57,026 bases of DNA, taken from assembly GCA_016879935.1 (NCBI GenBank), contig JAACJQ010000339.1:1-57026 (forward strand). Reading direction: 5' to 3'. The notes under the pieces are model-generated. The model was not told where the DNA came from, made no database searches, and saw only the letters and a list, made by a program, of their open reading frames with translations. The DNA is from Archangiaceae bacterium (GTDB taxonomy: Bacteria; Myxococcota; Myxococcia; Myxococcales; Myxococcaceae). The translations under genes were made by a program, and so were the position numbers. Shown here one piece after another: positions 1 to 56,866 of the stretch (position 1 is its first letter; each line of letters starts with the position of its first letter).

Positions 1-3000
1 CCTCGACGATGGTGCCGTCTTGCAGATGGTCGACCAGCGTCGCTTCACGCCGCACCTGCTTCGCCTGACGCGCGGCCTGAAAGAGTCGATGCGCCAGCGC
101 AGCTTCGACGGCCTCGGTCGCGGCCTTCACCTCGGCGTCGGGTGCGCGCAACGAGCGCCCAATCACCTCGACGATGCCGCTCACCACGTCGTGCGCTGCA
201 TCGAGCGGTACCGTCGCGAGGCATGCATGCACGAGCTCGCCGAACCGGCGACCGCTCGGCCGGCCCGCACGCCGCGCCACCGTCTGCTCCACCGGCACCG
301 CGCCTGACACCTCGGGCGGCGGCAGGTCTCTGGCGACGACGACCTTCATGCTCGGCAGCGCGCTGTTGGCGACGGCTTCACCACGCTCCAGCTTCCACGC
401 TTCGTACTCGGCGATGCTCTTCGGGCCCTCGACCTCGTCCTCCCGCAGCGCCTCGTCGGCCTCGAGCCCCGACGCGTCTTCTTTGTTCAGCTTCAGCACG
501 CGTGGGTCGAACCACACGACACCGTTCTTCCCCGACTCCGCGCGATGCAGCCCCGGCTTCGGCACCTCCAGCGGCAGCGGTCCATCACGGTCGACGATGA
601 CGTCGTGCCCGAACGCGGGGCAGCCGGGCGCGGGCTTCGGGTCGTGCGCGCGCTCCTTCGACGGGTAGAGCGACGGGTAGAGCACCTCGGTCCAACTGTC
701 TTTGAAGCGCTTCTCGCTGCACACCGGCACCACCAGCAGGTCCTTCGCGCGCGTGGCGGCGACGTAGCTCAAGCGCAGCGTCTCTTCGTTGTCGCGGCTG
801 ACGGCTTCGTGTTCGTGCTCGCGCAGCTCCGATGGCACGCAGCCTGCGAGCGGGTGCACCCACAGCCCACGCTCGGGGTCCACCCAGTGAGAGGGCTCCA
901 CGCGCGCGGCGTTCGCGGTCGGCTCGGCGAGAATCACGACGGGAAACTCGAGGCCCTTGGCGGCGTGCACCGTCATCATGCGCACGCCCTCGAGGCCCTG
1001 CTCGACCAGCGGCGCGTCGGGCGCTTCACCTTCTTCGGCCTCTGCTTCGAGCGACTCCACCACCTCGCGGAACGACGTCGACCGCCGCTCGTGCCGACGC
1101 GACACCTCGGCGAGCTGCAGCACGTTCGCCAGCGCCTGCGCGCCGGCTCTCCAGAACGCGACGCCCGCGTGGGCGCGAGTCGCTTCGAGCAGGTGATGCA
1201 GCGTGGCTGCGACGGGCCGCTCGTTGCGTTCGCGGTGCAGCTCCATCAACACCTCGAGCGCGGCGACGACGTCGACGAAGGCCGGGTCGGGCAGGGCTTT
1301 GACGTCGAACGGGCGCAGCGGGTGCAGCTTGCCCACCTCGCTCTTGAACGCGAACAGCACCTCGTCGGTGAGCGCGAAGAACGGCCCGCGGAGCGTCGCG
1401 TAGACCGACAGCTCGTCGTCGGGGCGGTCGATGGCGAAGAGCGCCGTGCGCAGGGCCATCACCTCTTCACGGTGATGAAACGAGCGCCCACCCACCAGCA
1501 CGTGCGGCACCTTGCGCGCCTCGAGCGCCTGCGCGTACGGCCGCGGCACGTCGACGCCGCCCCATCGCCGAAGCCGCTTGAACAGAATGCACACGTGGCG
1601 CGGAGCCACCGGCACCTTCTGCCCGTCTTCCTCCACCACCCAGCCGCTCGACGTCACCAGCCACTCGATGAAGCCGCCGACGACGTCGGGCACGCTCTTC
1701 TCGACGGCGTCCTTCGTCACCTTGCCCTTCGCGCTGAAGGGGTACGCGGCGGGCAGGGCGAGCAGTGACGGCTGCTCCTTGTTCGGCTCACGCCACTCAC
1801 CGAGGGCGACGTACTGCGCCTGGTGGTCGCCCTTCATCACCGGCGCGAACGCGGCGTTCACCGCGGCTTGAATGCCCGGCGTGCTCCGGAAGCTCGTCGA
1901 GAGGTACTCCACCTTCGCGCCGTGCTTCGCGAGGTGCGCCTTCACGCGGTGGTACAAGAGAATGTCGGCGCGGCGAAACCGGTACACGCTCTGCTTCGGG
2001 TCACCGACGACGAAGAGCTTCCCCGTCACCGGCGTCGTCTCGTACGGCTCGCTCACCGACGGGTCGGACGACGCGAGCAGCAACACGACTTCGCTCTGCA
2101 GCGGGTCCGTGTCCTGGAACTCGTCGATGAAGAGATGGGTGAAGCGCTGCTGCAACGACTCACGCACCGCTCGGTGCCGCTGCAGCAGGTTGCGCGTCAG
2201 CAGCAACAGGTCGACGAAGTCGAGTACGCCGGCACGGTCCTTCTCGACTTCGTACTGCGCGACCACGGGAGCGAGCTCGACGTGCAGCAGCGCGGCGAGG
2301 TCGGCGTCACAGCGGCGAACCACGTCCTGCAAGGCGCTCCACGCTTCGTCGCGCACGGCAGCGAGCAACGCTTCGGTGCGCCCGTTCAAGAACGAGACGC
2401 CCCACGGCTTCGACTCCCACTCGAACTTGCTGCTGCCGAGGTCGCGCAGCTGCGCCTCGAGCCCATCGTGGTCGCGCGGCGAGACGGACTCGCGGTGGTC
2501 GAGGTCAGAGAGGAAGCGCTTCACCTTCTGGAGCAGGTCGTAGAACCCGCTCCCGCGGTCTCCCTTGAGGCGCACGTGCGGGGCGTGGTCGGCGAAGGCC
2601 CGCAGCGCGACGACGCCGGCATCGAGCGAGGCGATGCGGTCGAGCGGGTCGCGTCTCCACGGCGTCGCGAAGTCGCGGTGCTCGATGAGCTGCTGCGCGG
2701 CGCGGAACAACACGAGGCGTGGCGGCTCGGCGTCACGGCCACGGCCCTTGCGTCGCAGCGCGCGCCGAATGCCCTCGGGCTGCGTCTGCAGCAACTGCTG
2801 AAACGTGCGGGTGAACGCGTTCTGCTGCAGCGCCTCGGCGTCACCTTCGGCGGCGACCTCGAAGAGCGGGTCGACCTCGGCCTCCACCGGGTACTCGCGC
2901 AGCAGGTCGGCGCAGAGCCCGTGAATGGTGCCGATGCGCGCGACCTCGAGCTCCTCCAGCGCGACGGTGAGGAGCCGCCGCTCCTCGGCCTCGGTCGCGG

Positions 3001-3241
3001 CGTCGCGAGCCTTCTCGAGCCGCGTGCGCAGGCGCAGCTTCATCTCGCCCGCGGCCTTCTCGGTGAAGGTGACCGAGATGAGCTGCTCGAGGCGCGCGCG
3101 GCCCTTCTTCACCAGCTGCACGATGCGCTCGACGAGCACGGTCGTCTTGCCGGTACCCGCCGCGGCCTCGACGACGAAGGTGCTGTCGAGGTCGTCGAGG
3201 AGCCGGCCACGAACGTCGGCATCGCCTGGCTGCTTCGTCAC
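1..3241 (-). CDS. AddA/RecB-like UvrD helicase-nuclease, 3' end cut by window edge
   Basis: The frame is open from a GTG at 3241 to the left edge, about 1080 residues. UvrD/REP superfamily 1 motifs are readable in order: Walker A AAAGTGKT (residues 26-33), motif Ia TFTEKAAGEMKLRLR, IGTIHGLCADLL, Walker B FIDEFQDTDP (near 372), GDPKQSVYRFRRAD (near 412), TVHAAKGLEFPVV (near 757) and YVAATRAKDLLVV (near 827). From about residue 997 the text GRRFGELVHACL looks like the start of a PD-(D/E)XK nuclease domain, whose catalytic residues lie beyond the window. Such proteins (AddA, RecB) unwind and resect double-strand breaks for recombination. The GTG overlaps the TGA of the upstream lipoprotein gene by 4 bp (GTGA), so translation is probably coupled. 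No AddB-like gene is visible upstream. AddA versus RecB cannot be settled here; the helicase-nuclease assignment is firm. Confidence 0.9.
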   Translation of the reverse strand, partial: MTKQPGDADVRGRLLDDLDSTFVVEAAAGTGKTTVLVERIVQLVKKGRARLEQLISVTFTEKAAGEMKLRLRTRLEKARDAATEAEERRLLTVALEELEVARIGTIHGLCADLLREYPVEAEVDPLFEVAAEGDAEALQQNAFTRTFQQLLQTQPEGIRRALRRKGRGRDAEPPRLVLFRAAQQLIEHRDFATPWRRDPLDRIASLDAGVVALRAFADHAPHVRLKGDRGSGFYDLLQKVKRFLSDLDHRESVSPRDHDGLEAQLRDLGSSKFEWESKPWGVSFLNGRTEALLAAVRDEAWSALQDVVRRCDADLAALLHVELAPVVAQYEVEKDRAGVLDFVDLLLLTRNLLQRHRAVRESLQQRFTHLFIDEFQDTDPLQSEVVLLLASSDPSVSEPYETTPVTGKLFVVGDPKQSVYRFRRADILLYHRVKAHLAKHGAKVEYLSTSFRSTPGIQAAVNAAFAPVMKGDHQAQYVALGEWREPNKEQPSLLALPAAYPFSAKGKVTKDAVEKSVPDVVGGFIEWLVTSSGWVVEEDGQKVPVAPRHVCILFKRLRRWGGVDVPRPYAQALEARKVPHVLVGGRSFHHREEVMALRTALFAIDRPDDELSVYATLRGPFFALTDEVLFAFKSEVGKLHPLRPFDVKALPDPAFVDVVAALEVLMELHRERNERPVAATLHHLLEATRAHAGVAFWRAGAQALANVLQLAEVSRRHERRSTSFREVVESLEAEAEEGEAPDAPLVEQGLEGVRMMTVHAAKGLEFPVVILAEPTANAARVEPSHWVDPERGLWVHPLAGCVPSELREHEHEAVSRDNEETLRLSYVAATRAKDLLVVPVCSEKRFKDSWTEVLYPSLYPSKERAHDPKPAPGCPAFGHDVIVDRDGPLPLEVPKPGLHRAESGKNGVVWFDPRVLKLNKEDASGLEADEALREDEVEGPKSIAEYEAWKLERGEAVANSALPSMKVVVARDLPPPEVSGAVPVEQTVARRAGRPSGRRFGELVHACLATVPLDAAHDVVSGIVEVIGRSLRAPDAEVKAATEAVEAALAHRLFQAARQAKQVRREATLVDHLQDGTIVE

Positions 3242-4419
3242 CGCACGTCCCGGTAGAGGGTGCGCTGCCCAGACGACGTCTGCCCGATGACGAACACCTC
3301 GTTGGGGCTCGAGACCCAGATGGCGTCGGCCGAGAGGATGAGCGGGGGCGCGGGCTGCAGCGCCGACAAGCCCCCATCGGCGAAGCGCAGGAACGGAGGG
3401 CCGCTCATCGAGTTGCCGACGGCGAGGAACTCGTGGTCGTCGATGGCGGCCACACCATAGAGGTCGGTGCCGGTGATGCCCGGGAGCAGCGACGTCCACG
3501 TGCCCGACGCGTCTCTGCGCGCGAGTCGATAGCCACCTTGCGTGCCGACGAGCAGCCCGTCGGTCACCGTGCCGCCATCGAAGGTGAGCGCGACCCACTG
3601 CCAGCGCGCGGCGCCCTGCATGGCGAGGTCGATGGGCTGTGGGTTTGCGCCACCGTTGACGACCTTCGACACGCCGTTCGCGCCCGAGACCCAGACGTCT
3701 CCGTTCGGAGCCACCACGCAGTTGCGCACGTTGCCGACGCCGAGCGTGGTGGTGACGCGGCTCCAGGCGCCGTTCGAGTACCGCAGCAGAATGCCCTCGA
3801 GCGACGTGCCCACCGCGACCGCGAACACCTGCTCGCCTTCACCACAGAGGCCGAGGAACCAATCGGTGCCGGTGGTGTTGTTCTTCAGCGTGTAGTTCGC
3901 GCCATCGGTGCAGTTGGCCTCGCACACGTACGAGTTGCTGCGACTGCCGGTGACCCAGACCTTCCCCAGCGGCGAGAGGTAGACGTCGGCCGCGTCGCTG
4001 AAGCTGAAGCCCTGCACCTTCGTGAGCGAAGCGCCCGTCGTGTGGAGCAGCTCGCCCGTGAAGGTGACCGCGTAGACGTCAGCGCCCCGCGCCGAGACGG
4101 ACTGCACCGCATAACCGCCGGGGTACGAGATGGCGCTCCAGGTGAACGCACGCGCCGCCGAGCCGCCAGCCGCGCCACCCGCCGCACTCCCGCCTGCGCT
4201 CGTCCCGCCCGCGCCGTTGCCGCCAGCGCTCGCTCCACCGGCGACGTTGCCTCCCGCTGCCGCCGAGCCTCCGCCGCTCACCGCTCCGCCGCCGGTCGCG
4301 GAGCCGCCAGCCGAACCACCGCCAATCGACGGGCCTGCGTCGACTCCGGCGTCGGTTCGAAACGGTGTGATGGGGCTACACGCGAGCGAGAGGGCGCAGG
4401 CGAAGAGAAGGCGACGCAC
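3238..4419 (-). CDS. Surface lipoprotein with Gly/Ala/Ser linker and propeller-like domain
   Basis: This 393-residue protein starts at a GTG. It has a short signal peptide with lipobox LSLAC (Cys 14), then a low-complexity Gly/Ser/Ala linker (about residues 30-90, DNA 4142-4335). The C-terminal domain of roughly 300 residues has repeated short segments such as DVYAVTF, VWVTGSRS and DVWVSGANG. That spacing suggests a beta-propeller of the kind often annotated as a glycosyl-hydrolase-like or Kelch-like repeat, although no family is certain. The architecture (lipid anchor, flexible stalk, globular domain) recurs in three other genes of this window. It lies directly upstream of the helicase-nuclease and overlaps it by 4 bp, but no functional link is obvious. 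Its role is unknown; cell-surface location is inferred from the lipobox. Confidence 0.8.
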   Translation of the reverse strand: MRRLLFACALSLACSPITPFRTDAGVDAGPSIGGGSAGGSATGGGAVSGGGSAAAGGNVAGGASAGGNGAGGTSAGGSAAGGAAGGSAARAFTWSAISYPGGYAVQSVSARGADVYAVTFTGELLHTTGASLTKVQGFSFSDAADVYLSPLGKVWVTGSRSNSYVCEANCTDGANYTLKNNTTGTDWFLGLCGEGEQVFAVAVGTSLEGILLRYSNGAWSRVTTTLGVGNVRNCVVAPNGDVWVSGANGVSKVVNGGANPQPIDLAMQGAARWQWVALTFDGGTVTDGLLVGTQGGYRLARRDASGTWTSLLPGITGTDLYGVAAIDDHEFLAVGNSMSGPPFLRFADGGLSALQPAPPLILSADAIWVSSPNEVFVIGQTSSGQRTLYRDVR

Positions 4420-38077: not shown

Positions 38078-39178
38078 GTGGTCGCGACGAAGCCACTGGT
38101 CGTTCTCACGCTGCTGCTTGGCACGCATGCCGCGGCCTTCGTCGATGATCTGCAGATCACCGAACACGTCAGGTACTCGGAGCTGATCATCGACGCGACG
38201 ATTCGAGAGCGCCGCTCCGCCTCGGTCGTGCTCGACGTCGTCGAGGTGCTCAAGGGAACGGCTGTGGCTCGCCTTACGGTCGAGCTCGGCTCGGACTTTC
38301 GCTGCGACATGAGCAACGCCGTTCCGTCGAGTGGGCGCGGGCTGTTCTTTCTGCAGAGGGAATCGGGCCAATGGCGCATCACGCAGTTCGGCCGCGGGTT
38401 CATCGAGCGCTCCGCCGACGCGAAAGACGGTCACCTGCTGGGCGGCGTCATCGTTCCACGGGCGTGGCTCGTCGACGGCGATCGCTCGACGGTGCGCTGG
38501 AGTGAGGTGATGAGCGAAGTGCGTCGCCTCGTCGCCGACCGCCGCGTCTTCCCCGATGCTGGTTGGCTCATCGAGCAGGTGGACTGTCATCGCTGCGCGC
38601 TCGGGCCCATCGTGGCTCGCTTCGGCGATGGTGGTGTCTTCGACTGGGGCCGTGCCGAGCATGGGCAGTCATCGGGCGTCAGCTGGTTGCGAGACCGAAT
38701 GCTCGCGGCGCAGGCGAGTCAGCGAAGCTCGATGGGAATCCTGGTGACGGCCTCCTCGTGGCCGCGTTCGGAGGAGTTGGTCGATGAAGGCACGTTGATG
38801 GTGCTCTGGTCGCAGGGCAGGGTGACGTCGGTCGTCGCCGAGCGCATCGACGCCGGCCTCGAGCCCAGTTGCTGGAACACGCAGGTCTCGACCTTCGCCT
38901 GCGAAGCGGTCACGCCGGTCGATGGTGGTTGGCTGCGCTGTGAGCGACCACTCCCGCTCTCGGTGTGCACACCGGCTGCGACGGTTCGCACCATCGAGGC
39001 CGCCGACGTCTCGCGCGTTCGTTGCCGCGGGCGCCGCTGCAGCGTCGACGGTGAAGGCTGGGCGCTCGGAGACCTCGACAGCAGCGGCTCCTGTCGCGCG
39101 ACCGAACGCGGCATGTGGTGTGTCCGCTCCGACGGCGGGGTTCCAACTTCCGAGGTCGTCGCGCCGGGCTCGGGCTGA
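38078..39178 (+). CDS. Secreted protein of unknown function
   Basis: This 366-residue protein starts at GTG 38078 with a signal peptide (PLVVLTLLLGTHAAA). The mature N-terminus reads ADLQITEHVRYSELIIDATI-like text that resembles the small secreted domains seen in myxobacterial 'hypothetical' proteins: a conserved strand SVVLDVVEVLKGTA followed by a Cys-containing segment (DFRCDMS). Further cysteines (VDCHRCALG, SCWNTQVSTFACE) suggest disulfides. No family or enzyme motif recognised. It follows the beta-helix lipoprotein by 21 bp on the same strand and may share its transcript. Confidence 0.7.
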   Translation: MVATKPLVVLTLLLGTHAAAFVDDLQITEHVRYSELIIDATIRERRSASVVLDVVEVLKGTAVARLTVELGSDFRCDMSNAVPSSGRGLFFLQRESGQWRITQFGRGFIERSADAKDGHLLGGVIVPRAWLVDGDRSTVRWSEVMSEVRRLVADRRVFPDAGWLIEQVDCHRCALGPIVARFGDGGVFDWGRAEHGQSSGVSWLRDRMLAAQASQRSSMGILVTASSWPRSEELVDEGTLMVLWSQGRVTSVVAERIDAGLEPSCWNTQVSTFACEAVTPVDGGWLRCERPLPLSVCTPAATVRTIEAADVSRVRCRGRRCSVDGEGWALGDLDSSGSCRATERGMWCVRSDGGVPTSEVVAPGSG

Positions 39179-39300
39179 TGCCGCAGGACACGAGAGTCAG
39201 CGCCCGCTCAGATTCCCGTGAGGTCGAGAGCGCACGTGCCTGCCAACTGCTGAACACCACGAGCGTGAGGCTGGCGGCTGCGTTGCAGTCTGCTCCGCGC

Positions 39301-40554
39301 ATGAGGCGCTCGACTCTGCCGCTGCTGCTCGCGTTGTCGTCTGGTTGTACCGACTTGCGTGACCTGCCTCCGCCGGGCGAGGCGGTCGTCTCGAAGGCGC
39401 AGCGCATCACCTCCGTTGCGCCTGATCAGGACGTCGCCGAAGCCTCGGCCGCGAACACCGCGTTCGGCCTCGCGCTGCTGGCCCGGCACCCCGACGACAA
39501 CTTCATCTTCTCGCCGTACAGCGTGACGTCGGCGACCTCGATGCTCGAAGCCGGAGCCGCCACCACGACGCTCTCGGGCATCACGCAGGCCCTGCGGCAG
39601 ACGTTGCCACCCGCGCAACACCATCGCGCCATGAACACGCTCGAGGCCGCGCTCGAAGTTCGCGGCGCGACGGCGAAGGCCCAGGGCGGTCGGCCCTTTC
39701 GGCTCGTGGTGACGAACCAGCTCTTCGCGCAGAAGGGCCAGCACCTCGAAGCGCCATTCCTCGACACGCTCGCGCAGGAGTACGGCTCGGGGCTTCGCCT
39801 GCTCGACTTCTCGACCGACGCCGCGCGTGTCTCCATCAACCAGTGGGTCGGCCAGCGCACCGAAGGCAAGATTCCCGCGCTCTTCCGTGAGAACGCGCTC
39901 ACGGGCGCGCGGCTCGTCATCGTGAACACGCTCTACTTCCGCGCCAACTGGTCGACGGCGTTTCCCGTGGCGAACACGAAGGCCGAGCCCTTTCACGGGC
40001 TCGACGGCTCGGTCGTCGACGTGCCGACGATGCACCACTCGAACGTCTCGGGCCGGGCTGCGGTCGTCGACGGCGTGCAGGTCGCCGAGCTGTCCTACGA
40101 CGGAGACGACACGGCGCTCGTCATCGTCGCGCCGCCCGCTGGCACCTTCGCCACCTTCGAGCGGGGCTTCGACGCCTCGAAGTACGACGCGCTCGTGTCG
40201 AAGGTCGAGCGCGCCACCATGGACCTTCACCTGCCGAAGCTCACGCTCCGCAGCGACTTCGACCTCACGCCCGATCTCGAGGCCTTCGGCATGGGTGACG
40301 CGTTCGTTCCCGGCAAGGCCGACTTCTCGGGCATGACGGGAGACCGCACGCAGTACCTCGCCGTCGCCGTGCACCAGGCCGTCATCATCGTCGACGAGAG
40401 CGGCACCGAAGCGGCCGCGGCGACGGGCTTCGCCACGCGCGTCACCGCAGCTCTGCAACCCGTCGAGGTCGTCATCGACCGGCCGTTCCTCTTCTTCCTT
40501 CGCGACGTGAAGACGGGCTTGGTGCTCTTCGCGGGCCGCGTCGTCAGGCCCTGA
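39301..40554 (+). CDS. Serpin-family protease inhibitor lipoprotein
   Basis: This 417-residue protein starts at ATG 39301, which places lipobox LSSGC (Cys 16) after a short signal peptide; the frame extends upstream without a signal. Serpin landmarks: DNFIFSPYSVTSATSMLEAGA, LVIVNTLYFRANW, VATMDLHLPKLTL-like text, the hinge SGTEAAAATGF (about residues 367-377) and the C-terminal VVIDRPFLFFLRDVKTGLVLFAGRV. The hinge has Gly-Thr-Glu-Ala-Ala-Ala-Ala, as in inhibitory serpins, so loop insertion should be possible. The likely P1 region follows as ATRVTA. Predicted role: cell-surface inhibition of serine or cysteine proteases, perhaps self-protection from secreted proteases. Its stop abuts the stop of the convergent kinase (TGATCA shared). 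Confidence 0.94.
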   Translation: MRRSTLPLLLALSSGCTDLRDLPPPGEAVVSKAQRITSVAPDQDVAEASAANTAFGLALLARHPDDNFIFSPYSVTSATSMLEAGAATTTLSGITQALRQTLPPAQHHRAMNTLEAALEVRGATAKAQGGRPFRLVVTNQLFAQKGQHLEAPFLDTLAQEYGSGLRLLDFSTDAARVSINQWVGQRTEGKIPALFRENALTGARLVIVNTLYFRANWSTAFPVANTKAEPFHGLDGSVVDVPTMHHSNVSGRAAVVDGVQVAELSYDGDDTALVIVAPPAGTFATFERGFDASKYDALVSKVERATMDLHLPKLTLRSDFDLTPDLEAFGMGDAFVPGKADFSGMTGDRTQYLAVAVHQAVIIVDESGTEAAAATGFATRVTAALQPVEVVIDRPFLFFLRDVKTGLVLFAGRVVRP

Positions 40555-49831: not shown

Positions 49832-50830
49832 ATGCCCACGCCATCGCCTGACTCCCTGCGCCTCGTTCGTGTGGGGTGGATTCAGCTCACCGACTCGTTG
49901 GTGGTGACGCAGGCCGACGCCACCGCGCAGCAGTTGGTGAACCGTGAAGCGTCGCTCGAGGGCATGGCGCTCCAGGAGGCGCTGCCGCCTGATCACGAAG
50001 GCGCCTCGTGGCAGCCGCCCTTCAACTACCTCGCCGTCACCGGCCCGGCCTCCAGGCTGCTCGTTCACGTCGCGCGACCGTTGACCTCGCAGGCGGGGTT
50101 GGTGGGCACGCTCACCTCGGTGAACGAGTACCTCGCCGAGGCGCAGTCGCTGGCGCGGGTTCAGCTGCGCAACACGGTGGAGTCGATCATCGCGGGCTTC
50201 GCGCACGAGGTGCGAAACCCGATGGCCGCGATTCAGAGCCTCACCGAGGTGGCGCTGCAGCAGACGCCGCAGCACGACTCGGTGCTCGTGCGCATTCCCG
50301 GGTTGGTCGCGCGGGTGGAGTCGTTGATCAAACAGGCCCTCGCCTACAGCCGCCCCAAGCCACCGCAGCGGTCGCTGCACCAGGTCGACGTCCTCGTCGA
50401 GCGCTCGGCCTCGCTGCTGCGGCCCCGAGACACGCCCGTCTCGCTCGACCTCTCGTTCGACGACCTCGAGCTGCCGCCGGTGATGGTCGACCTGCTCCAG
50501 GCCGAGCAGGTGCTCGTGAACCTGCTCGAGAACGCCCTCGACGCGGCGCGCACCCGGGTGGTGGTGCAGGCCCGCGAGGGCGGCACTCCGGTGCCGTCGG
50601 TCTGCATCGAGGTGAGCGACGACGGCGTGGGCGTGGCGCCCGACCTGGTGCCCCGCATCTTCGACCCGTTCTTCACCACCAAGGCGCATGGCACGGGTCT
50701 GGGGCTGGCCATCGCGCGCGACCTCACCCGGCTCACCGGCGGCGAGCTGCGCCTCAACACGCAGCGCAAGCAGACGACCTTCGAGCTGTTTCTTCCTTCG
50801 ACCCCGGCGCACGTGCGCAGCAACTGGTGA
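49832..50830 (+). CDS. NtrB-like soluble sensor histidine kinase
   Basis: This 332-residue protein lacks membrane segments. Residues 1-110 form a PAS-like or small sensor domain (VGWIQLTDSLVVTQADATA). The HisKA box is FAHEVRNPMAAIQSL with phospho-acceptor His 125, the HEVRNP form typical of NtrB/AtoS kinases. The ATPase domain has [32 protein letters not shown] and TTFELFLP. Its neighbour two bases downstream is an NtrC-like activator, so a dedicated two-component pair is very likely. This is the first gene of the GTPase/Roadblock cluster. Signal unknown. Confidence 0.95.
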   Translation: MPTPSPDSLRLVRVGWIQLTDSLVVTQADATAQQLVNREASLEGMALQEALPPDHEGASWQPPFNYLAVTGPASRLLVHVARPLTSQAGLVGTLTSVNEYLAEAQSLARVQLRNTVESIIAGFAHEVRNPMAAIQSLTEVALQQTPQHDSVLVRIPGLVARVESLIKQALAYSRPKPPQRSLHQVDVLVERSASLLRPRDTPVSLDLSFDDLELPPVMVDLLQAEQVLVNLLENALDAARTRVVVQAREGGTPVPSVCIEVSDDGVGVAPDLVPRIFDPFFTTKAHGTGLGLAIARDLTRLTGGELRLNTQRKQTTFELFLPSTPAHVRSNW

Positions 50831-50832
50831 CC

Positions 50833-52215
50833 ATGCCTCGCGTTCTCCTCGTCGATGACGACCCCACCTTCACCTTCGCCATCTCGGCGCTGCTCCAGAA
50901 CCAGGGGCACGACGTCGCCATCGCCAACCGGGGCGACGAGGCCATCGGCCGGGCGCGCGCCGCGTGCTTCGACGTGGCCTTCCTCGACCTGCACCTGCCC
51001 GATGCCGACGGGCTGGTGCTGCTCGACCAGATGGCGAGCGTCGACCCGCTGCTGCCCGTCATCTGTCTCACCGGCCGCGACGACACCACCACCGTGGTGC
51101 AGGCGATGCGAAAGGGCGCGCTCGACTACCTCATCAAACCCGTCGACCGGCAGACGCTGTTCAACGCCGTCACCTCGGCCTCGCAGTACTCGACGGCGCG
51201 GCGGAGCGGCTCCTGGCCTGCCCGCGCGGGCGCCCCGTCATTGCCCGTCGGAGCGTCACCGGCGTGGCTGCACGCAGTCGAGCTCATCACCGCCGCCGCG
51301 GCCGCGCCGAAGACGACGGTGCTCATCACGGGCGAGCCCGGCACCGGCAAAGAGGTGATGGCCACGCTGCTGCACCGCATGAGCCTGCGCCGGTCACAGC
51401 CGCTCGTCACCGTCAACGCCGCCTGCTTCACCCCGACGCTGATGGAGTCGGAGCTGCTCGGCCACGAGGCAGGCGCGTTCACCGGCGCGACGAAGAAGCG
51501 GCGAGGGCTCTTCGAGCAGGCCGACAAGGGCGTGCTGTTCCTCGACGAGATTGGTGAGCTCGCGCTCGACCTGCAGGGCAAGTTGCTGCGGGTCATCGAG
51601 GGGCACCCGTTTCGCCGGCTGGGAGGCGACACCGAGGTCTCGGTCGACGTGCGGCTGGTCGCGGCCACCAACCGCAACCTCAACGACCTCGTCGCGCGTG
51701 GGCTCTTTCGCGCCGACCTGCTCGAGCGCCTGCGGGTGTTCGAGGTGCGGCTGCCGGGCCTGCGCGAGCGCCGCGAAGACATTCCCCATCTGGTGCACTA
51801 CTTCCTCGCCAAGCTGGGCCCCGAGGTCGGCGTCGCGGCGCCGTCGATTCAGCCCGAGCCGCTCCAGGCCCTGGCCAGCCATCACTGGCCGGGCAACGTG
51901 CGAGAGCTGCGCAACGTGGTCGAGCGCGCGCTCGTGCTGTCGGCTGGTCAGCCCATCGGCCTGCGTCACCTGCCACGCGACCTCGTCGAGCCCCGCCCTG
52001 CCTCGTCGTCGCCGTCGGGCGTCACCAGCACTCCGAGCCCGCCGCCGATGTTCGAGTCCGCCGTCACGCTGGAAGAGGTGATTCGTCAGCACATCGTCGC
52101 ACAGTTCACCGCGACGGGCGGCAACGTCACCCGCACCGCCGAGCGGCTGGGCATGTCGCGGCTGGCGCTGCGCAAACGGCTTCAGGCCTACGGGCTGCGG
52201 CCGGTCGGTTCGTGA
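50833..52215 (+). CDS. NtrC-like sigma-54-dependent response regulator
   Basis: This 460-residue protein starts at ATG 50833, two bases after the kinase stop. The receiver has VLLVDDDP and acceptor Asp 52 in FLDLHLPDADG. The AAA+ domain has Walker A GEPGTGKE (167-174), GAFTGA loop (214-219) for sigma-54 contact, Walker B LFLDEIGEL, and RADLLERL. A helix-turn-helix of Fis type ends the protein (GGNVTRTAERLGMSRLALRKRL). It therefore activates sigma-54 promoters when phosphorylated by the adjacent kinase. Its targets may include the downstream Roadblock/GTPase genes or genes elsewhere; no clear sigma-54 promoter was seen in the 99-bp gap that follows. Confidence 0.96.
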   Translation: MPRVLLVDDDPTFTFAISALLQNQGHDVAIANRGDEAIGRARAACFDVAFLDLHLPDADGLVLLDQMASVDPLLPVICLTGRDDTTTVVQAMRKGALDYLIKPVDRQTLFNAVTSASQYSTARRSGSWPARAGAPSLPVGASPAWLHAVELITAAAAAPKTTVLITGEPGTGKEVMATLLHRMSLRRSQPLVTVNAACFTPTLMESELLGHEAGAFTGATKKRRGLFEQADKGVLFLDEIGELALDLQGKLLRVIEGHPFRRLGGDTEVSVDVRLVAATNRNLNDLVARGLFRADLLERLRVFEVRLPGLRERREDIPHLVHYFLAKLGPEVGVAAPSIQPEPLQALASHHWPGNVRELRNVVERALVLSAGQPIGLRHLPRDLVEPRPASSSPSGVTSTPSPPPMFESAVTLEEVIRQHIVAQFTATGGNVTRTAERLGMSRLALRKRLQAYGLRPVGS

Positions 52216-52314
52216 CCGGTCGCGATCGAACCACCGAGATCATCGTCACCACCCCGGCTCGTCGAACATCACGCGATTGAGGGTGGATCGGCGGTTGCTC
52301 TGGGGCTCGGCGCG

Positions 52315-53448
52315 ATGCCGACACTGCCCGGGCCCATCTGGATGGTCGATGACGAGGCCGAGCTCGTGGGCGCCACGGTGGCCATGCTCTCGCGCGACGC
52401 CGGAGACGAGGTGCGTGGCTCGACCGACCCCCGAGAGGTCGCGATGTGGATCGAGCAGACCCGGCCGGCGGTGCTCATCACCGACGTGCGCATGCCGCAC
52501 CTGAGCGGCCTCGAGCTGGTGACGCGGCTGCACCGTCGCTGGGGGCCGGTGCCCGTCATCATCATCACCGCGTTCCCGACGGCGCAGGTCGACACCGACG
52601 TGCGCGCGGGCCGTTTCGCCTACCTGCCCAAGCCCTTCACCTTTCAGGTGCTGCGCGAGGCCGTGCTGCGCGTGACCCAACAGCCGGCGTCGTCGGCCTT
52701 CAGCGGCGCCATCGCGGTGAGCATGCTGGGCGAGGTGGTGCAGCTCTACGGGCTGGCCAATCGCAGCGGCGTGCTCCGCGTCGAGTCACCCTCGGGCGTG
52801 GGCGAGATTCACTTCGACGCCGGGCGGGTCGTCGACGCCGTGGCGCCGCAGCAGCGCGGCGTGGAGGCCTTCAACACCATTCTCGGCTGGTCGTCTGGCC
52901 AGTTCTCGTGGCTGGTGGCGGTGCCGACGGAACACACCATTCACCTCGGCCTCTCGGAGCTGCTGCTCGAGGCCTACCGCGTTCGTGACGAGGCCGAGGC
53001 GGGCCACACCGCGGCTCCCGTGCCGAGCGGGTTCGACGAGCTCGACCTCGCGCTCGATGGCCTCATGCCCGGTGGCGTGCCGACGGAGCAGGTGAAGCGT
53101 GAGCTGCAGCGCCTGGGGCGGGCCGAGGGGTTTCTGGGCGCGGCGCTGTTCGACCTCGAGTCCAACCAGTGCCTCGCCTCGCTGGGTGACGGCGGCGCTT
53201 CGCCCATCGAGCACGCCGTGTCGGGCCACGCCGACCTCGTGCAGGCCAAGCAACGCACCATCGCCAAGCTCGACCTGCACGACGAGCTCGAAGACATCGT
53301 CATCTCGCTCTCGCGCGAGTACCACCTCGTGCGCCTGGTGAAGCGCCAGCCGCGGCTCTTCTTCTTCCTCACCCTCGACCGTGCGCGCGCCAACCTGGCG
53401 ATGGCCCGCTACCTGCTCTCCGACGTCGAGAAGGACATGGTCGTATGA
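52315..53448 (+). CDS. Response regulator with DUF4388 and C-terminal Roadblock domain
   Basis: This 377-residue protein has three domains. The receiver (1-125) has WMVDDEAEL, acceptor Asp 57 in LITDVRMPHLSG, and YLPKPFTF. A DUF4388/PATAN-like domain (about 128-225) shows FSGAIAVSMLGEVVQLYGLANRSG and GEIHFDAGRVVDAVA. The C-terminus (about 262-377) is a Roadblock/LC7 domain: FLGAALFDLESNQCLAS, LEDIVISLSREYHLVR, ANLAMARYLL. That last part is clearly similar to the two free Roadblock proteins at 54367 and 54771. A phosphorylation-controlled Roadblock protein is inferred, perhaps a GTPase-activating or scaffold unit for the GTPase at 55151. Its stop overlaps the next ATG by 4 bp (ATGA). Confidence 0.9.
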   Translation: MPTLPGPIWMVDDEAELVGATVAMLSRDAGDEVRGSTDPREVAMWIEQTRPAVLITDVRMPHLSGLELVTRLHRRWGPVPVIIITAFPTAQVDTDVRAGRFAYLPKPFTFQVLREAVLRVTQQPASSAFSGAIAVSMLGEVVQLYGLANRSGVLRVESPSGVGEIHFDAGRVVDAVAPQQRGVEAFNTILGWSSGQFSWLVAVPTEHTIHLGLSELLLEAYRVRDEAEAGHTAAPVPSGFDELDLALDGLMPGGVPTEQVKRELQRLGRAEGFLGAALFDLESNQCLASLGDGGASPIEHAVSGHADLVQAKQRTIAKLDLHDELEDIVISLSREYHLVRLVKRQPRLFFFLTLDRARANLAMARYLLSDVEKDMVV

Positions 53449-54305
53449 CGGGGCTCGTCGAGGGGCCCGACATCGCGCTGCGGGTGTTGTCGAGGGTCGA
53501 GGCGCTGGCCGACGACGCGACGGGCGCGCTCGTCTTCGGGCAGGGGTCGTCGATGTCGGGGGTGGTGCTCGTCGAGAACGGGCGGGTGTGCTGGGCCGCG
53601 GCGACGGGGCTGCGCCAGCGGCTGACCGACCTGCTGCGTGAGGCCTGCGCGCCGCGCCCGAGCGGGCTCGAGCTCGAGGCCCTGTTCCTCGAGTGCCGTG
53701 AGCGTCACCAGCCCATCGGTGAAGCGCTGGTGGCGCGCGGTGTGCTCGCGCCCGACGCGTTGCGCTCGGCGCTGCTCCACCACTCCGCGGAGTCGCTCTC
53801 GGCGTCTGCCTGCTGGAGCGGCGCACACCGCTTCGTCGCGCACCGGGCCCGTGGCTACCACTCGGCCTTCACCTTCCTGCCCGTCGAGCTGCTCACCTAC
53901 GCCAGCGCCGTGGCGAGGGGCGCCGTGGTGGCGCGCTCGGCGCAGTGCCGGTTGTCGACGCTGGCCGGGGCGCGCAACGCCGCCGTGTTCGACCAGCCCG
54001 GTCAGGTGCTGCTGGCCTGCCAGTTGCCGGCAGACCGCTCCGGCCTGCGCGAGCTTCGGGTCGCCGGGGCGTGGGCGGCAGAGAGCCTCGCGGAGTGCCC
54101 CGGGCCCAGCGCGCCGCTCAAGTTCGCCATGGACGGGCGGGGCGGGGTGTGGGTCGGCTGGCGCGACGAGGGGTTCACCTACCTCGTGCACTGCCGCGAC
54201 CGCGAAGACTTCTCGAGCCAGGTGCGCACGCTCATGCGCCGCGGCTTCACCTCGGCCGTTCAGAGCAGCGTGCCGCTCCCGACCTCAGACGCGCTCAGTC
54301 CCTGA
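53445..54305 (+). CDS. DUF4388-like protein of the GTPase cluster
   Basis: This 286-residue protein has an N-terminal part (GSSMSGVVLVENGRVCWAA) that resembles a DUF4388/PATAN strand pair. A helical middle (FLECRERHQPIGEALVARGVLAPDALRSALLHH) recalls the MshE N-terminal domain, and a C-terminal beta-rich region ends FTYLVHCRDREDFSSQV. No enzymatic motif. It is translationally coupled to the receiver-Roadblock gene (ATGA overlap) and 61 bp ahead of a free Roadblock gene, so it belongs to the same system. A protein-interaction role is inferred. Confidence 0.78.
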   Translation: MTGLVEGPDIALRVLSRVEALADDATGALVFGQGSSMSGVVLVENGRVCWAAATGLRQRLTDLLREACAPRPSGLELEALFLECRERHQPIGEALVARGVLAPDALRSALLHHSAESLSASACWSGAHRFVAHRARGYHSAFTFLPVELLTYASAVARGAVVARSAQCRLSTLAGARNAAVFDQPGQVLLACQLPADRSGLRELRVAGAWAAESLAECPGPSAPLKFAMDGRGGVWVGWRDEGFTYLVHCRDREDFSSQVRTLMRRGFTSAVQSSVPLPTSDALSP

Positions 54306-54366
54306 GCCGACCCCTGTCTGCACCTTCGTGCAGCGACCCACGGCAGCACCCACCGGAGACACACCC

Positions 54367-54732
54367 ATGGCTACCCCGAAAGAAGCGCTTCCCAGGTTGA
54401 TGGAGATCGACGGCTGCATCGGCGCCTGCATCGTCGACGCGAGCAGCGGCATGATGTTGGCGGCGAGCGGCAGCAGCGCGGCGATGAACCTCGAGGTCGC
54501 GGCCGCGGGCAACACCGACGTCGTGCGCGCCAAACGAAAGACGATGAAGGCGCTCGCGCTGAACGACTCCATCGAAGACATCCTCATCACGCTGGGCAAG
54601 CAGTACCACCTCATTCGCCCGCTCAGCTCGAACGACTCGCTCTTCATCTACCTCGCGCTCGACAAGTCGAAGTCGAACCTGGCGATGGCGCGCCACGCCC
54701 TCGCGAGCGTCGAGAAAGACCTCGCCATCTGA
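54367..54732 (+). CDS. Roadblock/LC7-domain protein 1
   Basis: This 121-residue single-domain protein starts at ATG 54367. It reads IGACIVDASSGMMLAASG, then IEDILITLGKQYHLIRPL and LFIYLALDKSKSNLAMAR, the strand-helix pattern of MglB-type Roadblock proteins. Myxococcus MglB is the GAP and polarity partner of the GTPase MglA; by analogy this protein should act on the GTPase at 55151. It resembles the C-terminal domain of the receiver protein at 52315 more closely than it does Roadblock protein 2. Confidence 0.93.
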   Translation: MATPKEALPRLMEIDGCIGACIVDASSGMMLAASGSSAAMNLEVAAAGNTDVVRAKRKTMKALALNDSIEDILITLGKQYHLIRPLSSNDSLFIYLALDKSKSNLAMARHALASVEKDLAI

Positions 54733-54770
54733 CGCCGTTCCACTCCAACCAGGACGAAAGACACCGACCC

Positions 54771-55139
54771 ATGGCCTCTGAAAAGCAGATCGTCGACACC
54801 TTCGAGAAGATTGCCGCCGAGATTCCGGGCTTCATCGCCGCGTCGCTGGTCGACCTCGACTCCGGCATGACGCTGGGGCTCAAGTCGCTGCGCCCCGAGT
54901 TCGATCTCGCCGCCGCCAGCGCCTACAACAGCGAGATGGTGAAGCAGAAGCTGAAGATCATGCGCTCGCTGAACCTCAAGACGCACCTCGAAGACATGCT
55001 GCTCACGCTGGGAGATCAGATTCACCTCATCAAGATGATTGGCACCGGCTCGTTCATCTACCTGGCGGCCGACCGCTCCAACTCGAACCTGGCCATCGTG
55101 CGCATGGCGGTGAACAAGAACGTGGTGGGCCTGCAGTAG
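54771..55139 (+). CDS. Roadblock/LC7-domain protein 2
   Basis: This 122-residue protein starts at ATG 54771. Text FIAASLVDLDSGMTLGLKS, LEDMLLTLGDQIHLIKM and FIYLAADRSNSNLAIVR shows the same fold as Roadblock protein 1. The two may form a heterodimer, as some Roadblock pairs do. It is 38 bp after protein 1 and 11 bp before the GTPase gene, so all three are almost certainly one transcript. Confidence 0.93.
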   Translation: MASEKQIVDTFEKIAAEIPGFIAASLVDLDSGMTLGLKSLRPEFDLAAASAYNSEMVKQKLKIMRSLNLKTHLEDMLLTLGDQIHLIKMIGTGSFIYLAADRSNSNLAIVRMAVNKNVVGLQ

Positions 55140-55150
55140 GAGCGAGCCCC

Positions 55151-56494
55151 TTGGCGACCCTCGACGCGGCTGGCGACGCGCTGGTGGTGCGCATCGTCTA
55201 CGACGGGCCACCCATCGCCGGGAAGACGACGAGCCTGTTGGCCCTGGCCGAGCGGCTCGGGCACGGGCGGCTCTTCACGCCCGAGGTGTCGGGTGGCGGT
55301 CGTACGCTGTTCTTCGACTGGCTCGAGTACGTCGGCGGCCGCTACGACGGCCGGGCGATTCACTGTGAGATCGTGAGCGTGCCCGGCCAGGCCGAGTTCG
55401 CGCCGCGCCGGAGGTTGCTGCTGAGCTCTGCCGACGCGGTGGTGTTCGTCGGCGACACCTGCGCCTCGGGCATCGACGAGACGACGGCTCACCTCGCCGA
55501 CCTGCGCGCGCACCTCGCGACGAGAGAGGGGCCGCCCGTCGGCGTGGTGTTGCAGGCGAACAAACGAGACCTGCCCGACGCGGTGCCGCTCGAGCGCCTG
55601 CGCGGGCACGGGCTGGCCGTCATCGAGTCGGTCGCGAGCCGCGGAGAGGGCATTCGTGAGGCCTTCGTCTTCGGCGTGCGGCTGGCGCTCGACCGGGTGC
55701 GTGAGCTCGAGCGGCTGGGGCTGCTCCACCGGGTTCCACGTGCGCACGACGAGGCTGGCCGGTTGTTGACGGCGCTGCGGGGCGTCGCCTTGAGCGGTGA
55801 CGGGCGCGTGTTGTTCCCCGAGGCTGCGTCGCAGACCGGGGCCCTCGTCGGGCACGCGCCGAAGGTGCCCGACGCCGAGATTCCGAGCGGGTGGGTGTGG
55901 CCGCCCATCAACGGCCGGGTGTCGTTGCAGGAGGCGACGGCGCGTGGGGTGCCGCTCGCTCGCGAGCTGTCGCCCGACGAGTGGGTGGCCGACTCGGAGT
56001 CAGGGTGGCGGTTTCACTCTCCGCCCGGCGGGGCCTTCGTCGACCCGGACGAGGCGCGCGCGGCGCTGAGTCTCTGGGCACAGGTGCACGCCTCGCTCGC
56101 CGACTGGATGAGCCCGAGCCGGTGCGTGGCGCTCGTCGAACACGGAGGCCGGTTTCGGCTGTGGCAGGTGGTGCGTTCGGAGCCGACGGTGTGGAAGTGG
56201 CTCGCGTCGAACCTCAAGGCTGCCGATGCGGGCGCGCTCGTCGACCAGGCCGCCCGCCTGTGCAACCGCGTGGCCGAGTCGTGGGCGAAGGCGCCGTGGG
56301 AGCTGCCCTGCACGCTCGAGACGGTGAGCGCGCTCGACGGCTCCTTCGTGAGCCTGGTGCCCGATGCCGGCAGCGTGAGGCCGACCGAGTCGACCGACCG
56401 GCGCGCCCGGCTGCGACACCAGCTCCAGACGCTGCTCGAAGGAGAGCTGGGCGTGAAGGGGCACGCCCTGGCCCGCTCCCTCGCCGGCGGCTGA
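55151..56494 (+). CDS. MglA-like small GTPase with long C-terminal extension
   Basis: This 447-residue protein starts at TTG 55151, supported by AGGAG eight bases upstream. Residues 1-195 are a Ras-like GTPase: P-loop GPPIAGKT (19-26), the MglA-type RTLFFDWL (51-58), a G3 element VPGQAEF (77-83) and NKRD (137-140), so it should bind GTP. The P-loop, FFDWL and NKRD are closest to MglA among families I recognise. The remaining 250 residues form an unassigned extension with several Trp-containing strands (GWVWPPINGRV, WRFHSPPGGAF, WQVVRSEPTVWKW) and a Cys-bearing helix. Preceded by two Roadblock genes, its likely regulators. It is convergent with a PDZ gene, stops adjacent. Confidence 0.9.
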   Translation: MATLDAAGDALVVRIVYDGPPIAGKTTSLLALAERLGHGRLFTPEVSGGGRTLFFDWLEYVGGRYDGRAIHCEIVSVPGQAEFAPRRRLLLSSADAVVFVGDTCASGIDETTAHLADLRAHLATREGPPVGVVLQANKRDLPDAVPLERLRGHGLAVIESVASRGEGIREAFVFGVRLALDRVRELERLGLLHRVPRAHDEAGRLLTALRGVALSGDGRVLFPEAASQTGALVGHAPKVPDAEIPSGWVWPPINGRVSLQEATARGVPLARELSPDEWVADSESGWRFHSPPGGAFVDPDEARAALSLWAQVHASLADWMSPSRCVALVEHGGRFRLWQVVRSEPTVWKWLASNLKAADAGALVDQAARLCNRVAESWAKAPWELPCTLETVSALDGSFVSLVPDAGSVRPTESTDRRARLRHQLQTLLEGELGVKGHALARSLAGG

Positions 56495-56866
56495 CTAGTT
56501 CGGCAGCTCGGGCTCGTCGTCGCCGTCGGGCACGGAGCCCAGCTCGGCGGCGCGCGCCATCGAGAGCACCTTCGTCGCGACATCGGTGAGCAGGTGGCCG
56601 GTGTCGATGGGCGCCCGGCCTTCGGCGAGCTCGAGCTCGACCGACGTCTCGGTGCCGTCGCGAAAGTAACGCACGCGCATCACGCGGGGGTCGCGCTGCG
56701 TCGCCTGGAGGTACGCCGCCCACGACGAGGTGGCGATGCCGTTCACCTCGAGCACCACGTCGCCGTACCGAAGGCCGGCGAGGTCGGCGGGGCTGCCGGG
56801 CAGGCACCCCAGAATGCACAGCCCGTTCATCGCCTCGGCCAGCTCCATCAGCGCTTCCTTCGTCAT
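56495..56866 (-). CDS. Small PDZ-domain protein
   Basis: This 123-residue protein starts at ATG 56866. Text GCLPGSPADLAGLRYGDVVLEVNGIATSSW is the carboxylate-binding part of a PDZ domain, followed by MRVRYFRDGTETSVELEL. No protease domain or signal peptide accompanies it, so it is probably a cytosolic adaptor that binds protein C-termini. Its TAG abuts the TGA of the GTPase gene, and it faces it. Membership in the GTPase system is possible but only positional. Confidence 0.85.
   Translation of the reverse strand: MTKEALMELAEAMNGLCILGCLPGSPADLAGLRYGDVVLEVNGIATSSWAAYLQATQRDPRVMRVRYFRDGTETSVELELAEGRAPIDTGHLLTDVATKVLSMARAAELGSVPDGDDEPELPN

What the first reader, a model, noticed from the sequence alone, without database searches (positions are those of the whole stretch)
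49832..56866. Phosphorelay-wired MglA/Roadblock cluster resembling a conservon
In 7 kb, mostly on one strand, there are an NtrB-like kinase, an NtrC-like sigma-54 activator, a receiver-DUF4388-Roadblock protein, a DUF4388-like companion, two single-domain Roadblock proteins and an MglA-like GTPase, with several 4-bp or very short junctions. Streptomyces conservons pair a kinase-like protein, a Roadblock protein, DUF742 and a GTPase; Myxococcus MglA/MglB uses a Roadblock GAP. Here the GTPase module is joined to a real two-component pair and a receiver fused to Roadblock, which I do not recognise as a described system. The function is inferred, but the linkage of parts is clear.
Basis: partly seen in the sequence, partly recalled or inferred. 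Interest (0 to 1): 0.75.

Follow-up and report, generated by a model that had tools for sequence, protein, structure and literature searches.

The report
Sigma-54-linked Roadblock–MglA switch operon
A myxobacterial gene cluster sets a sensor kinase and a gene activator beside three predicted Roadblock proteins and an MglA-like molecular switch, and a conserved promoter motif between them suggests that the kinase pair likely turns the switch genes on, which would be an undescribed way of wiring such a switch to signalling.

The parts
49832..50830 (+). NtrB-like histidine kinase, 332 aa, no strongly hydrophobic (membrane-like) segment
   Evidence: HisKA 32.4 bits, HATPase_c 80.1 bits; highest 19-residue hydropathy 1.19; 55% identical in L005, 54% in L168
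50833..52215 (+). NtrC-like sigma-54 activator, 460 aa (receiver, AAA+ with GAFTGA, Fis-type HTH)
   Evidence: 62% identical in L005 and L168; tree
52284..52299 (+). sigma-54 -24/-12 promoter-like site TGGATCGGCGGTTGCT (GG-N10-GC); ends 15 bp before the RDR start codon
   Evidence: the same position is occupied in 8 of 8 fetched loci where RDR follows NtrC
52315..53448 (+). RDR: receiver (about 52336-52665), DUF4388/PATAN (52705-52995), C-terminal RblA-like Roadblock domain (about 53077-53442)
   Evidence: Rbl HMM E 5.1e-22, E 1.2e-21; 40% identical to RblA over the domain
53445..54305 (+). DUF4388-like protein without receiver, 286 aa
   Evidence: DUF4388 19.1 bits, below cut-off; relatives at 12 of 23 GTPase loci; in one open frame with RblA in L165 and L166
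54367..54732 (+). RblA, 121 aa, Roadblock family not covered by Pfam
   Evidence: 61-82% identical in 13 other loci; at E<=0.001 the own-genome hits of this family lie only in this locus; no Pfam hit
54771..55139 (+). RblB, 122 aa, predicted Roadblock fold
55151..56494 (+). MglA-like GTPase, 447 aa: G domain (residues 2-185) plus a conserved C-terminal domain (about 55859-56374) of no Pfam family
   Evidence: C-terminal domain
56495..56866 (-). PDZ-domain protein, 123 aa, convergent neighbour
   Evidence: PDZ_6 38.8 bits; matched also in L005, L006, L010, L012, L013 and L168

Best explanation
The locus encodes a kinase, a sigma-54 activator, a receiver-DUF4388 protein with a predicted Roadblock domain, a DUF4388-like protein, two further predicted Roadblock proteins and an MglA-like GTPase, and the kinase-activator pair is predicted to switch on the Roadblock and GTPase genes from a sigma-54 promoter while the receiver likely lets the same signal act on the GTPase switch itself. 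Shown: the genes, their domains, the recurrence of the set in two phyla, the fused open frames and the conserved -24/-12 motif. Inferred step 1: the soluble kinase phosphorylates the NtrC-like protein, which then drives sigma-54 transcription from 52284-52299 of RDR, the DUF4388-like gene, RblA, RblB and the GTPase. Inferred step 2: RblA and RblB act as MglB-like regulators of the GTPase, perhaps as a heterodimer. Inferred step 3: phosphorylated RDR enters this complex through its RblA-like domain and changes GTP hydrolysis, exchange or placement. Inferred step 4: the GTP form acts through its C-terminal domain; a surface-motility or pilus output is the best guess, because PATAN response regulators elsewhere bind the pilus motor.
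Against: Among the 10 genomes that carry a locus-borne activator, it is the best match of the window NtrC in 1 (G024), so the activators are not simple orthologues, and the tree is a quick one with weak deep branches. Four of 17 RDR receivers lack the aspartate (L012, L013, L014, L025), so phosphorylation is not needed everywhere. In L168, a member of the same family, HK-NtrC-RDR/RblA-PDZ stands without RblB or GTPase, and 47 of the 50 Myxococcota genomes with the Roadblock family have no such GTPase. The window's site has two mismatches in the -24 box and would leave a leader of only about 5 bases before the RDR start. Eight of 23 loci have neither HK nor NtrC within 8 kb (L007, L009, L011, L015, L016, L017, L078, L081; L011, L016 and L017 are cut short by contig ends). 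L078 has no other part of the set. No interaction, GTP binding or phosphotransfer was tested.
Confidence: 0.55

Rival explanations
1. Two separable modules that happen to sit together: HK-NtrC-RDR(-RblA)-PDZ is a complete signalling unit, and RblB-GTPase is a mobile add-on with its own regulation. (This rival overlaps with the next one; the odds need not add up to 1.)
For: L168 has HK-NtrC-REC-DUF4388-RblA-PDZ without RblB or GTPase; L130 and L169 have HK-NtrC-REC-DUF4388 without the GTPase; L007, L009 and L015 have RblB-GTPase without HK or NtrC; the GTPase is patchy.
Against: The two halves recur together in both phyla, share the RblA-type domain, and in six divergent loci sigma-54 motifs face the RblA-RblB-GTPase operon directly.
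Confidence: 0.27
2. The NtrC-like protein regulates the cluster only at the level of transcription; the RDR receiver is a localisation or dimerisation module and no phosphosignal reaches the GTPase.
For: Sigma-54 motifs are very consistent; 4 of 17 RDR receivers have lost the phospho-aspartate.
Against: 13 of 17 keep it, the window among them; receiver-Roadblock fusion is found with both Roadblock types.
Confidence: 0.3
3. An actinobacterial-type conservon transferred to Myxococcota.
For: Kinase, Roadblock and GTPase genes in one cluster; a relative of RblB sits beside a Robl_LC7-like protein (16.8 bits, below the 23-bit cut-off) and a small GTPase in Austwickia.
Against: No DUF742 hit; arginine finger and VPGQ instead of the Group 2 motifs; real response regulators; no C-terminal LPxR in the kinase.
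Confidence: 0.02
4. Chance neighbourhood of common signalling genes in a large myxobacterial genome.
For: The genome has 59 sigma-54 domain matches and 151 Pkinase matches, so signalling neighbours are frequent.
Against: Expected 2.3 and 0.6 of 23 loci against 13 and 16 seen; promoter placement 0 of 20000.
Confidence: 0.02

Closest known systems
Myxococcus MglA/MglB with RomR/RomX and RomY (polarity module)
   Same: MglA-fold GTPase with the arginine finger and VPGQ; Roadblock-fold partner; RomX stimulates MglA exchange and the response regulator RomR enhances this (PMC9481161 passages; RomR as response regulator).
   Different: 447 aa with a second domain; two tandem Roadblock proteins outside Pfam Robl_LC7; receiver, DUF4388 and Roadblock in one protein; linked HK-NtrC with sigma-54 motifs. 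In M. xanthus mglA is not near the genes of these partners (PMC4316618 section 18).
Actinobacterial conservon (CvnA-D; Group 2 MglA)
   Same: Kinase, Roadblock and small GTPase encoded together (PMC4316618 section 18; PMC13343842 passages).
   Different: No DUF742 (that CvnC is DUF742 is from the finding and recall); Group 1-like G2/G3 motifs; has DNA-binding and Roadblock-fused response regulators, which conservons lack.
Group 3 MglA systems of beta/gamma-proteobacteria
   Same: One GTPase with one or two Roadblock proteins and a receiver-like partner with a predicted DNA-binding region.
   Different: Groups 2-5 lack the arginine finger and have GTPGQ; the receiver-like partner of Group 3 carries a predicted winged helix, not DUF4388-Roadblock; no HK-NtrC pair is described there.
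PATAN (DUF4388) response regulators of cyanobacteria such as PixG
   Same: Response regulator with a PATAN domain (that DUF4388 is PATAN is from recall).
   Different: PixG binds PilB1/PilC of the pilus motor (PMC12288463 passages); no Roadblock domain is mentioned in those passages.
NtrB/NtrC two-component systems
   Same: Domain make-up, order and GAFTGA loop.
   Different: The predicted target operon encodes a Roadblock/GTPase switch.

Membership tests
Conservon (Group 2) | CvnC protein with DUF742 (label from the finding and recall) | tested here: not met
   No DUF742 among Pfam hits at E<=1 of the cluster proteins (and, for RblA in the right frame, 113)
Conservon (Group 2) | GTPase without G2 arginine and with GTPGQ | tested here: not met
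   RT in 34 of 34; SVPGQ 26, TVPGQ 7, SAPGQ 1
Conservon (Group 2) | Kinase with C-terminal LPxR extension and no response regulator | tested here: not met
   Kinase ends 8 residues after HATPase_c, no LPxR read there; two response regulators present
MglA Group 1 | Arginine next to the G2 threonine and a TVPGQ-type G3 | tested here: met
   R51-T52 in 34 of 34; window SVPGQ, so the first G3 position differs from the published TVPGQ
MglA Group 1 | Single-domain GTPase of 240 aa or less (limit of the published set) | tested here: not met
   447 aa; C-terminal domain in 20 of 23 loci (L014 is cut by its contig)
Roadblock fold (MglB-like) | alpha-beta-beta-alpha-beta-beta-beta-alpha Roadblock fold | tested here: met
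Roadblock fold (MglB-like) | Pfam Robl_LC7 match | tested here: not met
   Not among hits of 37 members, nor of RblA, RblB and the RDR piece
Roadblock fold (MglB-like) | Stimulates hydrolysis or exchange of its GTPase | not testable with these tools
   needs purified proteins
Group 3 MglA systems | GTPase without G2 arginine, GTPGQ | tested here: not met
RomR/RomX GEF | RomR- or RomX-like sequence | not tested
   No comparison with RomR or RomX sequences was made
NtrB/NtrC pair | HisKA and HATPase_c kinase; receiver, GAFTGA AAA+ and Fis HTH regulator | tested here: met
   motifs read
NtrB/NtrC pair | Sigma-54 promoter motif nearby | tested here: met
   52284-52299 and equivalents in relatives; motif only, no transcript data

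The most novel reading that the evidence does not exclude
A two-armed His-Asp switch for a Ras-like GTPase: one kinase both builds the switch, through NtrC and sigma-54, and gates it, by phosphorylating a receiver whose fused Roadblock domain swaps into a RblA-RblB heterodimer and so sets the GTPase cycle; the two-domain GTPase, with a C-terminal domain of no known family, is the output.
Probability: 0.3. Interest if true: 0.82.

Novelty: new variant of a known kind. Interest (0 to 1): 0.62.

Why it matters
Bacterial Ras-like GTPases are known mainly from cell polarity (MglA) and conservons, and how phosphosignals reach them is only partly understood. This locus puts kinase, receiver, Roadblock and GTPase in one testable cluster, with receiver and Roadblock in a single chain and a promoter motif that points to its activator. 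It also brings a Roadblock family that Pfam's Roadblock model does not see in the members tested (37 scanned; RblB alone has 3022 relatives) and a GTPase-linked domain without a Pfam family.

Tried and rejected
Protein-kinase reading of the GTPase C-terminal domain: suggested by the strand/helix order of the model, dropped as unsupported because profile comparison with 11 own-genome kinases gave probability 0.5%. No convincing Pfam family for it: 3 families at E<=10 among 19 members, best E 0.016 in one member. PDB sequence hits (6 at E<=10) are short matches, the best to PkwA at E 9.5e-06 with no stretch passing on its own; they were not taken as kin.

Simple orthology of the activators: rejected; followed by the tree test. 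The 40 background rows are high-ranking matches to the window NtrC in 10 other genomes plus four own-genome activators, not a random sample; the 14 locus rows include a distal second activator at L079, which falls outside.

Sigma-54 scan: L007, L010, L016 and L079 show no site of 17.5 before RblA, nor do L005, L006, L008 and the window, where RblA follows other genes. The sets were defined after the pattern was seen; L168 and L169 were fetched later, L130 before the scan. L012 and L013 are near-copies and L014 is close, so 6 of 6 is about four independent cases. The threshold was 17.0 and 17.5; L005 and L168 pass only the lower one. The -24/-12 consensus and its weights were typed from recall. 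A hairpin after the GTPase was looked for by folding 56480-56560 and gave no signal (z -0.62).

Fusion in L080: REC-DUF4388 and RblB share one open frame while RblA lies between them in another frame; this may be an assembly error and was not used.

Names such as NtrB-like, the phospho-acceptor residues, DUF742 as CvnC and PATAN as DUF4388 rest on recall or on the finding. Papers: PMC4316618 outline and sections 13, 14, 15, 18; passages of PMC7159879 (no match), PMC13343842, PMC9481161, PMC11580455 and PMC12288463; all others as search listings only.
Full report
The observation. The window lies in a 9.53-Mb, 445-contig assembly. Kinase and activator are 2 bp apart; RDR follows after 99 bp; RDR and the DUF4388-like gene overlap by 4 bp; RblA, RblB and the GTPase follow with gaps of 61, 38 and 11 bp. 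The TTG start of the GTPase agrees with relatives that begin M/V/L-A.

Gene neighbourhood. A genome-contig scan with an RblB alignment gave 25 loci. The full order of the window recurs in L005. Elsewhere the same parts are shuffled. In L012, L013, L014, L018, L019 and L021 a HK-DUF4388-like-RDR operon runs away from RblA-RblB-GTPase and the activator lies a few kb off. In L006 and L008 most parts follow one another on one strand, with the activator upstream on the other. In Acidobacteriota, L079 and L080 carry HK, NtrC, REC-DUF4388, RblA, RblB and GTPase.

Counts. Across 23 loci with a GTPase domain over 90 bits (window included; duplicate L069 and one 38-bit match in L071 dropped; several loci are cut short by contig ends), the counts within 8 kb are: C-terminal domain 20, RblA 18, RblB 19 (the fused copy of L011 counted), RblA or RblB 21, DUF4388 16, REC-DUF4388 15, DUF4388-like companion 12, HK 15, NtrC 13. 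Most of these loci were found through RblB or its family, so presence of RblB is partly by construction. The unbiased set is the 10 places found by the GTPase sequence (window, L005, L021; L016, L017, L078-L082): a Roadblock-family gene within 8 kb in 9 (not L078), HK and NtrC both in 6 (window, L005, L021, L079, L080, L082). With 59 sigma-54 domain matches and 15 DUF4388 domains in the own genome, chance would give about 2.3 and 0.6 of 23 loci. Loci are related by descent, so this is a guide and not a test of independence. Eight of 23 have neither HK nor NtrC.

Fusions. L011 and L025 encode REC-DUF4388-RblB in one open frame (the receiver of L025 is below Pfam's cut-off). The window, L005, L071, L073, L079, L168 and L169 encode REC-DUF4388 with an RblA-type domain. 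L165 and L166, from two other genera of the family, encode a DUF4388-like domain and RblA in one open frame, without GTPase or RblB within about 7 kb. Receiver, DUF4388 and Roadblock thus occur as parts of one chain, which is the firmest ground for an action of the receiver on the Roadblock side. Thirteen of 17 RDR receivers keep the phospho-aspartate; L012, L013, L014 and L025 do not (read from the alignment).

The sigma-54 promoter. A -24/-12 motif lies at 52284-52299, between activator and RDR. In eight fetched loci where RDR follows the activator on the same strand (window, L005, L073, L079, L082, L130, L168, L169) all eight have a motif of 17.0 or more of 19.5 within 100 bp of the receiver; in the six divergent loci all six have one before RblA and five before the kinase; random placement gave means of 0.12, 0.10 and 0.30 and reached the observed count in 0 of 20000 trials each. 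Over every RDR, Rbl, GTPase and NtrC domain in the loci, duplicates dropped, sites of 17.5 or more stand within 150 bp upstream of 5 of 17, 9 of 49, 1 of 24 and 0 of 16; random placement reached the first two in 0 of 2000 trials and the GTPase count in 448 of 2000. The window's site is among the weaker, and its start point would leave about 5 bases before the RDR start codon.

Does the activator belong? Among 11 genomes searched with the window activator, 10 have a locus-borne activator; it is the best match in one, G024. On a tree of 14 locus-borne and 40 background activators the locus-borne label needs 5 changes against 12.4 in shuffles (0 of 500), though deep branches are weak. The nearest background row to the window pair, L090, itself sits in a HK-NtrC-REC-DUF4388 cluster (L130).

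Distribution. The GTPase is rare: 1 of the 59 other genomes in a set of 60 relatives, 3 of 195 Myxococcota genomes with the window's own counted, and 5 of 396 genomes of the Acidobacteriota sample with the centre G203 and the known G204 counted. None of six other genomes of the window's genus has it. The Roadblock family is commoner: 50 of 195, 44 of them with a single match. Of the five contexts read, two are DUF4388-like/RblA frames (L165, L166), one shows no other part (L167) and two are HK-NtrC-REC-DUF4388-RblA (L168, L169). L168, in the window's family, is a natural version without RblB and GTPase, with the PDZ gene in the same convergent place.

Mechanism. The most likely reading is that the soluble kinase phosphorylates the activator, which opens the sigma-54 promoter of the RDR-to-GTPase operon, and that RDR, expressed from it, carries the signal into the Roadblock-GTPase complex. 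The first half rests on conserved DNA motifs, the second on fused frames and on analogy with RomR/RomX acting on MglA (PMC9481161 passages). The output is unknown. PATAN response regulators bind the pilus motor ATPase in cyanobacteria (PMC12288463 passages), and in L169 a T2SSE-family ATPase gene follows REC-DUF4388-RblA, so pilus or surface motility is the first thing to test.

Comparison and novelty. It is built like an MglA/MglB switch and is not a conservon (membership table). Wuichet and Sogaard-Andersen noted PATAN genes near some Group 1 and 5 GTPases (section 18) and classified GTPases of 240 aa or less (section 13), which leaves this GTPase out. Ten searches of the open-access library turned up, in titles, abstracts and the passages I read, no description of a receiver-DUF4388-Roadblock protein or of a sigma-54-linked Roadblock/GTPase operon; subscription journals are mostly not held. 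I rate it a new variant of a known kind.

Noticed in passing
L165:7439-8380 and L166:7578-8996 (minus strand): A DUF4388-like domain and RblA in one open frame, away from any GTPase of this kind; the Roadblock family occurs in 50 of 195 Myxococcota genomes, 44 with a single match. The GTPase partner there may be ordinary MglA.
   Followed up: partly
L168:4248-8626: HK-NtrC-REC-DUF4388-RblA-PDZ in the window's family without RblB and GTPase: a natural comparison for what the GTPase adds.
   Followed up: partly
L026:8489-10369: In Austwickia an RblB relative stands beside a Robl_LC7-like protein (below cut-off) and a small GTPase on the other strand; in Kribbella L022 a 210-aa GTPase-like frame precedes it.
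   Followed up: partly
L017:2025-2912: A histone-deacetylase-family gene lies between RblB and the GTPase in a Vicinamibacteria contig.
   Followed up: no
L169:5332-6750 and 2441-3376: A T2SSE-family ATPase and an FHA-DUF4388 protein near REC-DUF4388-RblA, a possible link to pili.
   Followed up: no
L089 (G000:C193:1-11000): The own genome has another cluster with a kinase, a classical Robl_LC7 protein and a REC-DUF4388 protein.
   Followed up: no
L087 (G000:C82:1-13000): A DUF4388 frame lies beside another MglA-like GTPase of the own genome.
   Followed up: no
L071:6219-8226: A weak GTPase-like frame (38 bits) and REC-DUF4388-Rbl are divergent with a sigma-54 motif facing each.
   Followed up: no
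L080:9181-11355 (minus strand): REC-DUF4388 and RblB share one open frame with RblA in another frame between them; possibly an assembly error.
   Followed up: no
window 39115-40554: A serpin-family gene (Pfam Serpin 283.7 bits) in the same window.
   Followed up: no
L012, L013, L014 and L025 RDR receivers: The phospho-aspartate is missing from the receiver (alignment).
   Followed up: no
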